NCBI GenBank assembly: GCA_003168295.1
Contig: PMST01000482.1
Coordinates: forward strand, 27,361-34,067
DNA length: 6,707 nt
From: Actinomycetota bacterium
GTDB taxonomy: Bacteria > Actinomycetota > Actinomycetes > Streptosporangiales > Streptosporangiaceae
Direction: 5' to 3'
The notes below the pieces were generated by a model. That model had not been told where the DNA came from, searched no databases, and saw nothing but the letters and a program-made list of their open reading frames with translations. Both the position numbers and the translations under genes were made by a program. Each line of letters starts with the position of its first letter. The first letter of the stretch is position 1. Below, piece by piece: positions 2,494 to 6,277 of the stretch.

Positions 2494-4068
2494 GTGTCCG
2501 GTAGGTCACGCTCACTGCCTGCTCGGCCCAGCCTGCGGTTCTTGCGGCTCGAAGCCAAACGCCGCCTGGCCGCGGGCGAGTTTCCGACCCTGCACGAGGC
2601 CCAGGCCGCTATCGCGTGGGAACACGGCCTGCCCAGCTGGGCCGCACTGAAGCAGGCCTGCGCCGCATCCCAGCTGTCAGAGCCCGCGCAGGAAAGCCAC
2701 GCCCTGGCCCAGCTGCGCTGGCTGATCTCCCGCTTCTCCGACGCCGGCCGCCCGGGCTGGACGCCCCCCGCCGATGGCGAGCTGGCCGAGCACTTCGATG
2801 ACCGGCTCCTGGCCGCGGTTCCGGCCGGGAGCCTGGCCGCCCAGCTCAGCAAGGTCGCTCCGGACCTGAGCGAAGAACTCATCGTGATCGGTCAGGCGCC
2901 GCTGGAGGCGCACGTCCAGCTGGCTGGGATGCGCTACCTGGCGACGGTCGAAGCCGACCCGCCGCACCGGCTGACCGGGCTGCGGGGGTTTCCCCTCGCC
3001 GAGCGCATCACCGATCCCCGGCTGACGGCCCCGCCGCCAGTCCACATCTACGGCACCACTCCCGACCAGACCGTCGGCCAGGCCGCCGAGGCCGCCGAGG
3101 CCCCCGAGGCCGAGACCGCCGAGCTGCTCTCGATCGCAGACGATGCCTTCTCCGAGCTCGGCCTGGCCGCCCTGGTCCTGGCCGGCGGCGAGCCAGGCCG
3201 CCCGGCGTGGGTGGTCACCAAGGGCTACGCCGACCTCGACGGGGCCGAGGTCCTGGACGCCAGCCGCCGGTTCGCCGCGCCCGGTGTCACCGCGCTCGTC
3301 ACGGCCACCGCCGTGCTCCGGCTGGTCGCCGAGGGCCGCTTCGGCCTGGACGCTGCGGCCAACGACCACCTGCGGACGGTGCGCCTGGCCGACGACGCCA
3401 TCACCGTCAGGCAGTTGCTCAGTCACGCCGCCGGGGTCGACAACCCCGCCGAACTCTACGCCGACAGCGTCCCCGACCTGGCGACCCTGTACGGCCCGGT
3501 CGTCCCCTGCAGCGGCCCGCGCGGAACCGCCCGGCCGAGCAATGGCGGCTACGCCGTGCTCGGTCAGCTGATCGCCGACGTCACCGGAATGGCTTACGTA
3601 AGCGCGGTCACCCGCCTCGTGCTCGACCCCCTCGGGATGCGCGACTCGCGGTTCCCGGACCGCGCGGCGGACATCGGCGCCGATGCGGTCACCGGCTACA
3701 CGGTGACCCCGGCGGGCGTCTTCTCCCCGGCCGCGGCCCGGGTTTCGACCGTCCCGGCCGTGGCCGGCCTGTGGTCCACCGGGGCCGACCTCGTGCGCCT
3801 GGGCAGCGCCTGGTCATCGCTGCTGCCCGCGGCGCTGGCCCGGCAGGCGCTCACCGTCCAGGCCGAACCGGGACCCGGCGGCCACCGCGTGGGCCTCGGC
3901 TGGCTGCTCAGCGAAGACGGCACCGCCGTGCACAGCGGGGCCGGCCTCGATGCCACCGCCTTCCTGCGCGTCCGCGTCCGCGACCTCCGCACGTACGTCG
4001 TGCTGACGAACCGGCCGATCATGCTCAATTCCATCGACGCCCGCCTGCGGCAGACCTGGAACCCTTAA
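2494..4068 (+). CDS. Serine hydrolase / beta-lactamase-fold protein lacking the catalytic motifs (probable pseudoenzyme)
   Basis: 524 residues, no signal peptide or membrane segment, so cytoplasmic. Residues about 12-57 (PSLRFLRLEAK, then FPTLHEAQAAIAWEHGLPSW) resemble the short N-terminal module that often precedes ankyrin repeats in bacterial proteins. Residues about 65-180 look like an NTF2/steroid-isomerase-like domain such as the N-domain of ORF12/LpqF-type hydrolases; this assignment is from pattern memory. An Ala/Glu linker (197-210) leads to a beta-lactamase/transpeptidase-like domain, about 211-524, recognised from TATAVLRLVAEGRFGLD, ITVRQLLSHAAGV, SNGGYAVLGQLIADVTG, LDPLGMRDSRF and HSG (480-482). 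The family nucleophile motif SxxK, expected before LVTATAVL, reads G264-V-T-A267, and the YxN motif reads P348-S-N350. Ser, Lys and Tyr are therefore all absent and only the HxG-like motif remains, so classic acyl-enzyme chemistry is unlikely. A ligand-binding, scaffold or sensor role is inferred. It is first in an operon with an ABC exporter; the next gene starts 21 nt after its stop. Confidence 0.88.
   Translation: MSGRSRSLPARPSLRFLRLEAKRRLAAGEFPTLHEAQAAIAWEHGLPSWAALKQACAASQLSEPAQESHALAQLRWLISRFSDAGRPGWTPPADGELAEHFDDRLLAAVPAGSLAAQLSKVAPDLSEELIVIGQAPLEAHVQLAGMRYLATVEADPPHRLTGLRGFPLAERITDPRLTAPPPVHIYGTTPDQTVGQAAEAAEAPEAETAELLSIADDAFSELGLAALVLAGGEPGRPAWVVTKGYADLDGAEVLDASRRFAAPGVTALVTATAVLRLVAEGRFGLDAAANDHLRTVRLADDAITVRQLLSHAAGVDNPAELYADSVPDLATLYGPVVPCSGPRGTARPSNGGYAVLGQLIADVTGMAYVSAVTRLVLDPLGMRDSRFPDRAADIGADAVTGYTVTPAGVFSPAAARVSTVPAVAGLWSTGADLVRLGSAWSSLLPAALARQALTVQAEPGPGGHRVGLGWLLSEDGTAVHSGAGLDATAFLRVRVRDLRTYVVLTNRPIMLNSIDARLRQTWNP
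3082..3123 (+). repeat. GCCGAG-rich short repeat encoding an Ala/Glu linker
   Basis: Imperfect repetition of GCCGCCGAG / GCCGAG within the hydrolase-fold gene encodes QAAEAAEAPEAET (residues 197 onward). It separates the N-terminal region from the beta-lactamase-like domain and is probably a flexible or helical linker. Such simple repeats are prone to length variation by slippage. Confidence 0.6.
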
Positions 4069-4089: not shown

Positions 4090-4482
4090 ATGTACCAGCC
4101 GTATCCGCAAGACACCCAGCTGCCGGAAACCCGGCGCCTGCCCGCTCCCGCTTCGGTGCTGAACGCCGTCAAGGTCATGTACATCGGCGCGGCCGCGAGC
4201 ATCCTCGGCATCGTCATCGACATCCTCACGGTGGGCGCCACCAAGAGAGCCATCGAGAGGCGTTCCCATCACCTGTCGGCGAGCCAGATCAACTCGTCCC
4301 AGCACGTCACCGGCACGGTGCTGTTCGCCCTGGCCACGGTGGACACGCTGGGCGGGCTCAGCGCCCCGATCGCCGGGGCGGTCAAGATCTGGGCGATCCT
4401 GGTCTGGCTGGTCGGGCTGACCGCGATCGTGTTCTTGTGGCGGCGCAGCTCCACCGAGTTCTTCAGGGCCACGCCGCAGTGA
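4090..4482 (+). CDS. Small membrane protein of unknown function (three predicted helices)
   Basis: 130 residues. A polar, Pro-rich N-terminus (MYQPYPQDTQLPETRRLPAP) is followed by three hydrophobic stretches, about residues 27-49, 73-93 and 96-117. A basic end (WRRSSTEFFR) follows the last helix and fits a cytoplasmic tail. The overall plan, a YQPYP-type start then helices ending in an ILVWLVGL..VFLWRR motif, recalls small uncharacterised actinobacterial membrane proteins. From memory many of those are longer with an extra helix, which I cannot verify here. It is well placed for translation, and its stop TGA overlaps the GTG of the ABC ATPase (GTGA, 4479-4482), so the two are translationally coupled. 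It could be an accessory subunit of the exporter; its function is unknown. Confidence 0.85.
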   Translation: MYQPYPQDTQLPETRRLPAPASVLNAVKVMYIGAAASILGIVIDILTVGATKRAIERRSHHLSASQINSSQHVTGTVLFALATVDTLGGLSAPIAGAVKIWAILVWLVGLTAIVFLWRRSSTEFFRATPQ

Positions 4483-5426
4483 TCGAGCTGGACGGGCTCA
4501 GCAAGCGCTTCGGCTCGGTCACCGCGCTGGACGACCTGAGCTTCACCGTGCGCCCGGGCCATGTGACCGGCTTCCTGGGGCCGAACGGCGCGGGCAAGAC
4601 CACCACGATGAAGATCATCCTCGGACTGGACACCCCGTCGGCGGGAACCGCCCTGGTCAACGGGCGCCGCTACGACCGGCTGGTCCGCCCGTTGCGCCAG
4701 GTCGGTTCGCTGCTTGACGCGACCGCCCTGCACGGCGGCCGCACCGGCCGGCTCCACCTGGCCTCGATCGCGCAGAGCAACGGCATCGGGCGCGGCCGGG
4801 TCGCCGAGGTGCTCGGGCTGACCGGCATGGAGGCGGTGGCGGACCGGCGGGTCAACGGGTACTCGCTCGGCATGAAGCAGCGGCTCGGCCTGGCCGCCGC
4901 GATGCTCGGCGACCCGCCCGTCCTGATGCTCGACGAACCGGTCAACGGCCTGGACACCGAGGGCATCGGCTGGATCCGGCAGTTCTTCAAGGCGCTGGCG
5001 GCCGAAGGCCGCACGGTCCTGGTGTCGAGCCACCTGATGAGCGAGATGGCGCTGAGCGCCGACCACCTGATCGTCATCGGCCGCGGCAAGCTGCTCGCGG
5101 ACATGCCCACGGCCCAGCTCATCGCGGAGAACGCGCGCCACGACGTGCTGCTCCGATCGCCACAGGCGGCCGACCTCGCCGGGCTGCTCACCGCCCGCGG
5201 CGCGACCGTCACCACGCAGCCCGACGGCGCCCTCGTCGTCACCGGCCTGGACGCCGCCACGATCGGCGACCTGGCCGCGAGCCGCGGCATCGCCGTGCAC
5301 GCGCTGGTGCCGCGGCAGGCCTCCCTCGAGGACGCCTACCTCGACCTCACCGGCGAAAGCGTCGACTACCACGGCACCCCGGCCCAGCCCAGCGGGCCGT
5401 CACCGAAGGGACACCAAACCCGATGA
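4479..5426 (+). CDS. ABC transporter ATP-binding protein, DrrA/BcrA/NatA-like exporter type
   Basis: Hydrolyses ATP to drive export through the ABC-2 permease encoded next. 315 residues from GTG 4479, chosen because MIELDGLSKRFGSVTALDDL is the usual start of the fold and GTGA overlaps the previous stop. Walker A GPNGAGKTT (34-42), signature YSLGMKQRL (128-136, the SLGMKQR form typical of drug-exporter ATPases), Walker B VLMLDEP (148-154), D-loop GLD (157-159) and switch His185 (SSHLMSEM) are all intact, so it should be active. The Q-loop region reads VGSLLDA, without a plain Gln, as is common in this subfamily. A C-terminal region from about 225 (RGATVTTQPDGALVV, then ASLEDAYLDLTGE) is the usual regulatory extension. 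The stop TGA overlaps the first ATG of a tandem repeat leading to the permease. Substrate is unknown; small lipophilic molecules, antibiotics or peptides are typical for the family. Confidence 0.95.
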   Translation: MIELDGLSKRFGSVTALDDLSFTVRPGHVTGFLGPNGAGKTTTMKIILGLDTPSAGTALVNGRRYDRLVRPLRQVGSLLDATALHGGRTGRLHLASIAQSNGIGRGRVAEVLGLTGMEAVADRRVNGYSLGMKQRLGLAAAMLGDPPVLMLDEPVNGLDTEGIGWIRQFFKALAAEGRTVLVSSHLMSEMALSADHLIVIGRGKLLADMPTAQLIAENARHDVLLRSPQAADLAGLLTARGATVTTQPDGALVVTGLDAATIGDLAASRGIAVHALVPRQASLEDAYLDLTGESVDYHGTPAQPSGPSPKGHQTR

Positions 5427-5474
5427 GCACAGCCCGATGAGCACAGCCCGATGAGCACGGCCCGATGAGCACGG
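5419..5474 (+). repeat. Four tandem copies of a 14-bp unit containing the ATPase-permease stop-start junction
   Basis: The unit CCCGATGAGCACRG is repeated four times without spacers: 5419-5432 and 5433-5446 end in CACAG, 5447-5460 and 5461-5474 end in CACGG. Every unit carries an ATGA. The first ATGA is the overlap of the ATPase stop (TGA 5424-5426) with an ATG at 5423; the last ATG (5465) is the permease start. Exact tandem copies with only one variable base point to recent replication slippage or duplication. Confidence 0.95.
5423..5468 (+). other. Chain of three overlapping minicistrons, each encoding MSTAR
   Basis: ATG at 5423, 5437 and 5451 each open a frame of five codons, MSTAR, ending in TGA at 5438-5440, 5452-5454 and 5466-5468. 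Because the repeat unit is 14 bp and each frame is 18 nt, every stop overlaps the next ATG by the same ATGA, ending at the permease ATG 5465. The only Shine-Dalgarno-like sequence nearby is GAAGGG (5405-5410), 12 nt before the first ATG; none precedes 5465 at a usable distance. The permease would thus be reached by successive termination-reinitiation, by ribosome sliding, or by direct entry. Whether the minicistrons are translated is inference. Confidence 0.5.
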
Positions 5475-6277
5475 CCACGGCACCTACCGCACCGGCCCCG
5501 CCGAACGCCCCTTCGATTCCCGTCCGGGCCCGTGACCTGCTCGGATGCGAATGGACCAAGTTCCGCTCGGTCCGCTCGACCTACTGGACGCTGGCCGTCG
5601 CGATCGTCACGCCCATCGGGTTCAGCATCCTGGTAGCTTCGGCCTTTGCGGCCGCGCCGCCGGGCGGGGCGCCGCCCGATCCGCTGCTGCCCGCGCTGCT
5701 CAGCCAGGAATACGCGGTGATCGCGGTCGCCGTCCTGGGCGTGCTGTCGTTCAGCTCGGAGTTCGGCACCGGGCTGATCCGCACCACCTTCGCCGCGGCG
5801 CCGCGCCGTCGGGCGGTGCTCGCCGCCAAGGCGGCCGTGACGGGCGGGGTGACGCTCATCGCGGGCGAGGTGGTCGCCTTCTCCTCGTTCTTCGCCGACC
5901 AGGCGATCCTGGCCGGCCATCACCTCGGCGTGTCCCTGTCCCGCCCCGGCGTGCCCGGGGCGGTGCTGGCCGCGGGGGCCCTGCTGTGCGTGTGCGCCCT
6001 GATCGGCGTGGCGCTCGGCGCGATCGTCAGGCACACCGCGGGCGGGATCGCCGCGGCCATCGGGGTGATCGTCCTGCCGGCCATCGTGGCCCTGCTCCGG
6101 CCCCCGTGGAGCGACCGGATCGGCCGGTTCACCCTGCTGGACGCGGCCAGGCAGGTGACGGCCCTGCATCCGCAGCCGGACCTGTTCGCCCCGGTCGGCT
6201 CCCTGCTGGTCCTGCTGGCCTGGCCCGCCGTCGCGCTGGCCGCCGCGGCCCTGCTGATCACCCGTCGCGACGTGTGA
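5465..6277 (+). CDS. ABC-2 type transporter permease
   Basis: Membrane-spanning partner of the ATPase encoded upstream. 270 residues: a disordered Ala/Pro/Thr-rich N-terminus (1-20), then RDLLGCEWTKFRSVRSTYWTL (about 23-43), the cytoplasmic entry motif seen in actinobacterial ABC-2 permeases. About six hydrophobic segments follow at 41-61, 82-97, 122-145, 165-187, 190-211 and 242-265. The segment SSEFGTGLIRTTFAAAPRRRAVLAAK (97-122) is the family's conserved loop after helix 2. The C-terminus is a short basic RRDV. ATG 5465 is taken as the start because the three ATGs upstream in the tandem repeat all meet a stop after five codons. It depends on coupling to the ATPase gene for translation, as no good ribosome binding site is present. 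Substrate unknown. Confidence 0.93.
   Translation: MSTATAPTAPAPPNAPSIPVRARDLLGCEWTKFRSVRSTYWTLAVAIVTPIGFSILVASAFAAAPPGGAPPDPLLPALLSQEYAVIAVAVLGVLSFSSEFGTGLIRTTFAAAPRRRAVLAAKAAVTGGVTLIAGEVVAFSSFFADQAILAGHHLGVSLSRPGVPGAVLAAGALLCVCALIGVALGAIVRHTAGGIAAAIGVIVLPAIVALLRPPWSDRIGRFTLLDAARQVTALHPQPDLFAPVGSLLVLLAWPAVALAAAALLITRRDV

What the first reader, a model, noticed from the sequence alone, without database searches (positions are those of the whole stretch)
5419..5474. ATGA translational-coupling junction amplified into a four-step relay
The stop-start overlap between an ABC ATPase and its permease is repeated four times as a 14-bp tandem. Each upstream copy makes a complete five-codon minicistron (MSTAR) whose TGA overlaps the next ATG. 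Since each unit carries its own ATGA, gain or loss of a copy keeps the relay intact, though it could change how many ribosomes reach the permease. This could tune the ATPase:permease ratio by repeat number, a slippage-driven setting rather than an on/off switch. The repeat and frames are seen directly; the tuning role is inference.
Basis: partly seen in the sequence, partly recalled or inferred. Interest (0 to 1): 0.75.

Follow-up and report, generated by a model that had tools for sequence, protein, structure and literature searches.

The report
Repeated stop-start relay between transporter genes
In what looks like an actinobacterium the overlapping stop-and-start signal between two transporter genes has been copied four times in a row, making tiny five-codon genes that could pass ribosomes along, and similar repeats lie before some other genes in related bacteria.

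Summary
A 14-bp unit is repeated 4.1 times at 5419-5476. The ABC ATPase stop overlaps the first ATG, three MSTAR minicistrons follow, and the permease starts at the fourth ATG. It is not a one-off: 12 of 120 listed ATPase homolog clusters end in MSTAR or MSTAP, so by inference they share at least the first unit. Other 14-bp ATGA arrays lie at unrelated junctions in the order, such as ABC ATPase/MacB permease and SpoIIE phosphatase/STAS. Spacings of 2 mod 3, which make each stop overlap the next start, occur in more genomes than 1 mod 3; a reversed-pattern control shows no such bias. Tandem arrays of this phase more often end exactly at a gene start: 14 of 53 versus 1 of 38, p = 0.003. Best reading: slippage copies of an overlapping junction, tolerated because each copy re-couples translation across a 38-nt gap. 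Tuning of the subunit ratio by copy number is untested. The closest known elements are mycobacterial MIRUs. New variant of a known kind.

The parts
4090..4482 (+). small membrane-protein-like ORF (130 aa), upstream member of the gene cluster; its TGA overlaps the ATPase GTG (GTGA 4479-4482)
   Evidence: 52% identical to the ORF in the same position of L001; no Pfam match
4479..5426 (+). ABC transporter ATPase (315 aa), stop TGA 5424-5426 inside the first ATGA
   Evidence: PF00005, E 9.7e-26; 77% identical to the ATPase of L001
5405..5411 (+). GAAGGGA, Shine-Dalgarno-like, about 11 nt before the first ATG (5423); none comparable before the other three ATGs
   Evidence: duplex energies
5419..5476 (+). 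tandem array, period 14, 4.1 copies, one ATGA per unit
   Evidence: spacing and units
5423..5440 (+). minicistron 1, MSTAR-stop; its TGA overlaps ATG 5437. In 12 homolog clusters the same peptide (MSTAR or MSTAP) is the C-terminus of the ATPase itself
5437..5454 (+). minicistron 2, MSTAR-stop; its TGA overlaps ATG 5451
5451..5468 (+). minicistron 3, MSTAR-stop; its TGA overlaps ATG 5465
5465..6277 (+). ABC-2 type permease (270 aa), start at the fourth ATG
   Evidence: homologs named ABC-2 type transport system permease protein by a source; no Pfam match of its own; codon usage places the gene start at unit 4

Best explanation
The array is a tandemly duplicated ATGA stop-start junction. Replication slippage in the unconstrained tail/linker between ATPase and permease copied the junction. 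Because the unit is 14 bp (2 mod 3), every extra copy is a five-codon minicistron whose stop overlaps the next start by 4 nt. Ribosomes, or the initiation they promote, are handed ATPase -> MSTAR -> MSTAR -> MSTAR -> permease, so coupling survives a 38-nt gap that would otherwise weaken it. With at least three units every reading frame meets a TGA-ATG pair inside the array, so indels in the ATPase tail do not uncouple the genes. Shown: repeat, frames, trace in relatives, recurrence of arrays at other junctions, phase bias. Inferred: the slippage origin, that the minicistrons are translated, and that they carry the coupling. Not shown: any effect of copy number.
For: Geometry. SD only before the first ATG; the permease ATG is weaker than background. 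In E. coli, lengthening a native -1 overlap to a 38-nt gap cut reinitiation by 80-90% in two gene pairs and abolished it in a third, and 15 nt of upstream gene sufficed for coupling (PMC10666635, two sections read). Relatives share unit 1, read in another frame. In 101 genomes, ATGA triples at 2-mod-3 spacings occur in 38, 25 and 29 genomes (L = 11, 14, 17) versus 11, 19 and 18 (L = 10, 13, 16); 44 genomes favour 2 mod 3 and 8 favour 1 mod 3, or 35 and 11 after dropping recurrent homologous families, sign p = 5e-4. The reversed-pattern control gives 25 against 19 of 303 genome-period cells, p = 0.43. Tandem arrays ending exactly at a gene start: 14 of 53 versus 1 of 38, p = 0.003. Arrays with upstream stop at unit 1 and downstream start at the last unit: L127, L128, L131, L139, L271 within that set, and L102 from the targeted pattern.
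Against: No translation data. L=14 versus L=13 presence is not significant (14 against 8 genomes, p = 0.29) and 17 versus 16 is borderline (p = 0.07). L=11 tandem arrays end at no gene start (0 of 12). Non-tandem ATGA triples show no phase bias at gene starts (16 of 43 versus 6 of 23, p = 0.42). Arrays with both array entry and exit at gene ends are not significantly biased (5 of 53 versus 1 of 38, p = 0.39; all), nor are starts at any unit (14 of 53 versus 5 of 38, p = 0.19; counts, test). Arrays also sit at gene 3' ends with no following start (L101, L106) or in unclear DNA. RRF depletion did not change coupling in E. coli (PMC7538156, abstract), which argues against same-ribosome reinitiation as the main mechanism. 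Genomes of one order are not independent samples.
Confidence: 0.6

Rival explanations
1. Neutral slippage repeat: the array has no effect on translation worth selecting. Both protein ends are unconstrained, duplications there are tolerated, and the permease is initiated on its own or by general mRNA unfolding.
For: ATPase tails and permease N-termini of relatives carry other short tandem repeats (VDYHG x3, AASPA, MSPMSPMSP, DAHP). ATGA arrays also occur at gene 3' ends and in unclear DNA. Several of the phase comparisons are not significant.
Against: Pure neutrality without use of the upstream ATGs predicts no phase bias, but a bias is seen overall and for tandem arrays that end at a gene start. 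The permease ATG has no SD of its own.
Confidence: 0.25
2. One reading: repeat number changes by slippage and sets the ATPase:permease ratio, because each hand-over loses some ribosomes.
For: Follows arithmetically if each hand-over is below 100%. In M. tuberculosis longer repeats upstream of fpg1 went with higher expression (PMC2734929, passages), so repeat length can matter for a downstream gene, though the mechanism there is not this one.
Against: No copy-number series could be read: no DNA of close relatives was reachable, and the variation seen is at the protein level only. Copies 3 and 4 carry substitutions, so the array is not wholly fresh.
Confidence: 0.12
3. Frame-buffer selected as such: the array is kept because it terminates and restarts ribosomes arriving in any frame, insuring the operon against indels in the repeat-rich ATPase tail.
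For: All three frames meet a TGA in the array. The window's ATPase uses unit 1 while relatives' ATPases read unit 1 and stop at its end. Tails of three listed homologs (P0162, P0174, P0191) run on into what looks like permease coding sequence, in or out of frame.
Against: Selection for insurance is weak; the property follows automatically from any 14-bp array of three or more units.
Confidence: 0.1
4. Assembly or base-calling artefact: copy number, or the frame difference in the ATPase tail, is wrong in this contig.
For: No reads or genome of the strain were available. The ATPase tail of the window differs from relatives by a frame change just before the array.
Against: The copies differ by substitutions, and the same unit appears at the protein level in 12 ATPase clusters drawn from jgi and ena sources.
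Confidence: 0.06

Closest known systems
Mycobacterial interspersed repetitive units (MIRUs), e.g. senX3-regX3 (review PMC12548453, passage; PMC4213456, passage; original paper Supply 1997 not held)
   Same: Repeats sitting at start codons, an ORF inside the unit coupled to the next gene with -4 nt spacing, tandem and copy-variable. The 77-bp and 53-bp units named are both 2 mod 3, as here.
   Different: The unit here is 14 bp, not 40-100 bp. It looks like a local copy of the junction itself rather than a mobile interspersed sequence, and most arrays listed at other loci of the order have unit sequences of their own.
ATGA (-4 nt) termination-reinitiation gene pairs (PMC6728339, passages; PMC10666635, abstract and two sections)
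   Same: ATPase and permease of one transporter joined by a 4-nt stop-start overlap.
   Different: Four overlaps in series instead of one, with three minicistrons between the genes.
Short upstream ORFs that deliver ribosomes: axe-txe two-codon minigene (PMC8708949, passages), engineered short upstream ORFs (PMC13255528, abstract), bicistronic designs (search listing only)
   Same: A very short translated ORF raises or sets translation of the next gene.
   Different: A natural tandem chain of such ORFs between two genes of an operon.
Repeat-driven expression variation: GCAGA repeats in the pil1 leader peptide (PMC3894217, abstract); repeats upstream of fpg1 (PMC2734929, passages)
   Same: Repeat number upstream of a gene goes with its expression.
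   Different: pil1 acts through leader length and transcription attenuation; here no attenuator is proposed and no expression effect is shown.

Membership tests
ATGA (-4 nt) coupled gene pair | stop of the upstream gene overlaps start of the next ORF by 4 nt | tested here: met
   ATGA at 5423, 5437, 5451 and 5465
ATGA (-4 nt) coupled gene pair | translation of the downstream gene depends on that of the upstream gene | not testable with these tools
   no expression data
MIRU | unit of about 40-100 bp | tested here: not met
   unit 14 bp; size range from the passage
MIRU | ORF within the unit coupled at -4 nt to the next gene | tested here: met
   geometry only: three MSTAR minicistrons with 4-nt overlaps; coupling itself not measured
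MIRU | interspersed copies of the same repeat at many loci of one genome | tested here: inconclusive
   window genome not held; in 345 genomes of the order the unit pair with at most 1 mismatch occurs in 9, and most arrays listed have other units
Phase-variable (on/off) repeat | change of repeat number shifts a reading frame of a protein | tested here: not met
   ATPase stops at unit 1 and permease starts at the last unit whatever the copy number
Copy-number rheostat | repeat number differs between close strains and changes output | not testable with these tools
   no DNA of close relatives reachable; best genome relative about 72% identical with a single ATGA

The most novel reading that the evidence does not exclude
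Tandem ATGA micro-relays are a general genetic element of high-GC actinobacteria: slippage-born arrays with units of 2 mod 3 that sit between functionally linked genes, are translated unit by unit, keep the genes coupled whatever frame the upstream gene ends in, and let copy number set the ratio of the two products. MIRUs would be the long-unit form of the same principle.
Probability: 0.2. Interest if true: 0.82.

Novelty: new variant of a known kind. Interest (0 to 1): 0.6.

Why it matters
Whether translational coupling needs a touching stop and start, and whether the same ribosome does it, is still disputed (PMC10666635, abstract and two sections, against PMC7538156, abstract). Natural arrays with several hand-overs in series would give a direct test: output against number of hand-overs measures loss per step. 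If the phase bias holds in a larger survey, a curious repeat becomes evidence that these short ORFs are read in the cell. It would also give a simple rule, unit length 2 mod 3, for finding further cases, and a possible (speculative) reason for the lengths of MIRU units.

Tried and rejected
Chance match: the only viral-contig hit of the two-unit pattern (L100) lies antisense to the longest ORF there, in what I take for a phage contig, and was dropped. The plasmid collection gave one match of 62 bases to the start of the permease core, not to the array. L = 15 was tried as a comparator and rejected: 91 of 101 genomes match, many listed matches have low repeat identity, as expected of in-frame coding sequence; its loci were not classified.

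Junction DNA of relatives: 24 of the 80 loci were printed, as were 17 of the genome-search loci L081-L098 (several are the same contigs as, and two, L085 and L098, are cut before the junction). None that can be read shows the array. A scan of 101 sequences (580,739 bases) found a 14-bp ATGA array only in the window; L059 has a 7-bp GTGACTG array. Of 9 genomes with the two-unit pattern (11 matches, 1 control match) I count four with arrays: G086, G099, G213, and G247 whose first unit is ATGG; five without: G169, G181, G245, G288, and G211, borderline with two ATGA units and a following GTGA. G086 and G213 arrays lie at gene 3' ends without a following start.

Limits of the survey: loci are the first 15-30 listed per period (15 for L=10, 25 for L=16, 30 for the others); L = 14 loci come from the 345-genome search, the other periods from a 101-genome draw. 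Palindromic arrays are counted on both strands. L102, L101, L106 and L108 came from the targeted pattern and are not in the 53. Gene edges rest on a codon-usage score that I trained on this gene family (window included) and on a threshold of my choice (0.1, 0.15 later). Genome lists and control lists for the 101-genome draw were read off and typed into.

Considered and rejected: on/off phase variation (no protein frame changes with copy number). Searches for prior description: (capped listings of titles and abstract starts) showed single minigenes and engineered short ORFs but no tandem chain of short-unit ATGA arrays; MIRUs came up in the review read. The library lacks most subscription journals, so absence from print is not claimed.

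Full report
WHAT IS THERE. The window holds a conserved operon-like cluster: a beta-lactamase-fold (PF00144) serine hydrolase (2494-4068), a small membrane-protein-like ORF (4090-4482), an ABC ATPase (4479-5426) and an ABC-2 type permease (5465-6277). The same four genes lie in the same order in L001 at 59, 52, 77 and 72% identity. Between ATPase and permease, TRF reports a 14-bp tandem at 5419-5476, 4.1 copies, 97% matches. Each unit holds one ATGA (5423, 5437, 5451, 5465). The ATPase stops in the first, three five-codon ORFs (MSTAR) follow, each ending in the next ATGA, and the permease begins in the fourth. The longest exact period-matched run is 26 nt against a maximum of 14 in 500 resamples.

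WHY 14 BP MATTERS. A unit of length L = 2 mod 3 puts the TGA of the next ATGA in frame with its own ATG, so copies make minicistrons with 4-nt overlaps. L = 0 mod 3 makes in-frame repeated starts, as in relatives whose permease begins MSPMSPMSP. L = 1 mod 3 runs past the next start. In the window all three frames meet a TGA inside the array. This is arithmetic from the sequence.

RELATIVES. Of the 120 listed ATPase clusters (785 found), 12 end in ...MSTAR or ...MSTAP, and one more in ...MSAIR; six end in ...MP. The 12 are among the best 21; of the other nine, seven end ...TPTG, one ...GRLR, and P0139 stops short of the tail. The tail of the 12 (for example TPNPMSTAR) is what the window reads in another frame just before and through unit 1. 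So those ATPases appear to run through unit 1 and stop at its end, and the window's ATPase, after a frame change in its tail, stops one unit earlier. The permease P0001 (92% identical) begins MSTAPMSAST, which I read as an in-frame trace of the same unit. In reachable genomes the nearest permease is 71-72% identical (L001, genome G001) and has one ATGA. Of the 24 junctions printed and the 17 (two of them cut before the junction, several repeated contigs) none that can be read has the array, and a scan of 101 sequences found it only in the window.

NOT A ONE-OFF. The two-unit pattern with at most one mismatch was found in 9 of 345 genomes of the order (11 matches, one control match). Four of the nine hold arrays at other genes: G099, a SpoIIE-type phosphatase followed by two MSTSR minicistrons and a STAS protein (L102); G247, a CGNR/ABATE protein ending DPMGAVR, one MSAAR minicistron, then a PTP-like protein (L108; its first unit is ATGG, not ATGA); G086, after a DivIC gene with no start at the end (the next gene starts over 100 nt on); and G213, also at a gene 3' end (Pfam for the first three). 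A sequence-blind pattern, three ATGA at 14-bp spacing, matched 157 of 345 genomes, many as near-perfect arrays of up to eleven units (listing capped).

PHASE TEST. In one draw of 101 genomes, three ATGA at spacing L occur in 11 (L=10), 38 (11), 19 (13), 25 (14, read off), 18 (16) and 29 (17) genomes. Genomes with more 2-mod-3 than 1-mod-3 spacings: 44 against 8; after dropping L=11 genomes in families that recur as homologs, 35 against 11 (sign p = 5e-4). By pair, 11/10 gives p = 0.024 after the drop, 14/13 p = 0.29, 17/16 p = 0.07. The reversed-pattern control in the same genomes gives 25 against 19 cells of 303, p = 0.43. Both classes of spacing put stops in all three sense frames, so sense-strand coding does not explain the difference. 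Among tandem arrays (unit identity at least 0.7) a codon-usage classifier placed a gene start exactly at the last unit in 14 of 53 with L = 2 mod 3 (L=11 0/12, L=14 10/24, L=17 4/17) and 1 of 38 with L = 1 mod 3 (L=10 0/9, L=13 1/18, L=16 0/11), p = 0.003. Results that do not show the bias: starts at any unit, 14/53 versus 5/38, p = 0.19; upstream stop at the array as well, 5/53 versus 1/38, p = 0.39; non-tandem triples, start at the last unit 16/43 versus 6/23, p = 0.42. The classifier places the window as stop at unit 1, start at unit 4, though window genes were in its training set.

FULL RELAYS ELSEWHERE. Arrays with the upstream gene ending at unit 1 and the downstream gene starting at the last unit: L139, ABC ATPase to MacB/FtsX-type permease, 3 units, the same kind of pair as the window; L131, MgtE_N/CBS protein to DUF1003, 3 units; L127, SNF2 helicase to a SWIM protein, 6 units, the last a GTGA; L128, SurA_N protein to MazG, 4 units entered through TGATG; L102 as above; L271, ABC ATPase to a TPP enzyme, 17-bp units, 6 copies. 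The units differ in sequence between loci, so I take these as independent arrays.

MECHANISM. Between the ATPase stop and the permease start lie 38 nt. In E. coli, opening a native -1 overlap to this distance cut reinitiation by 80-90% in two pairs and to nothing in a third, and 15 nt of upstream gene were enough for coupling (PMC10666635, two sections read). In the window the only good Shine-Dalgarno stands before the first ATG. The simplest account is that the array began as one junction served by that SD, was copied by slippage, and stayed coupled because each copy hands over to the next. Whether the same ribosome moves on is open: RRF depletion did not affect coupling in E. coli (PMC7538156, abstract). 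The phase bias suggests that the upstream ATGs are read, since frame should not matter otherwise; tolerance (1-mod-3 copies purged) explains it as well as positive selection. Tuning by copy number is compatible but rests on nothing measured.

AGAINST KNOWN SYSTEMS. MIRUs of mycobacteria appear to insert at start codons so that an ORF in the unit is coupled at -4 nt (review PMC12548453, passage). The 77- and 53-bp units named in PMC4213456 (passage) are both 2 mod 3. The window array works like a MIRU but fails its size criterion and is not shown to be interspersed, so it is not filed as one. It belongs to the general kind of ATGA-coupled junctions and is a new variant of it.

VERDICT. Real, traceable in relatives, and one example of a recurrent class. 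The relay is likely (0.6), the rheostat unproven (0.12).

Noticed in passing
window 4090-4482 versus L001 1602-2090: The small membrane protein of the window lacks a stretch of about 32 residues, hydrophobic in its first half, that the L001 homolog has between QHV and TGTVLF.
   Followed up: no
L211, L213, L214, L218, L219, L222, L223: A conserved, non-repetitive chain of three ATGA at 11-bp spacing (ATGAGCCGGAGATGAGTC, 4 variable bases, then the gene start) stands before an aminotransferase-like gene (name recalled, not searched). The 18 bases are invariant in the 7 aligned loci, while the upstream flank varies; the coding stretch after the start is also well conserved.
   Followed up: partly
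P0040, P0044, P0048, P0049, P0053, P0058, P0060, P0062, P0065, P0067, P0089: Permeases of relatives start with in-frame repeated starts (MSPMSP up to MTPMSPMSPMSP, MTPMTPMTP), the 9-bp in-frame counterpart of the window's 14-bp array.
   Followed up: partly
L271, minus strand, around 1504: After six 17-bp ATGA units the downstream gene itself begins MKTRKPMKTRKPM, an in-frame 18-bp repeat of the start.
   Followed up: no
L114 (G004:C104), L207, L265 (G075:C1): Some arrays carry ATGA on both strands (unit containing TCATGA), up to nine units; L114 has no clear gene on either side, L207 follows a gene that stops in it, L265 faces an antisense gene; function unclear.
   Followed up: no
window 4479-4482: The ATPase itself starts with GTG inside GTGA, overlapping the stop of the small ORF, so the cluster has two overlapping junctions in series.
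   Followed up: no
P0162, P0174, P0191: ATPase homologs whose tails run on into what looks like permease coding sequence, in or out of frame: either natural frame changes at a junction or sequencing errors.
   Followed up: no
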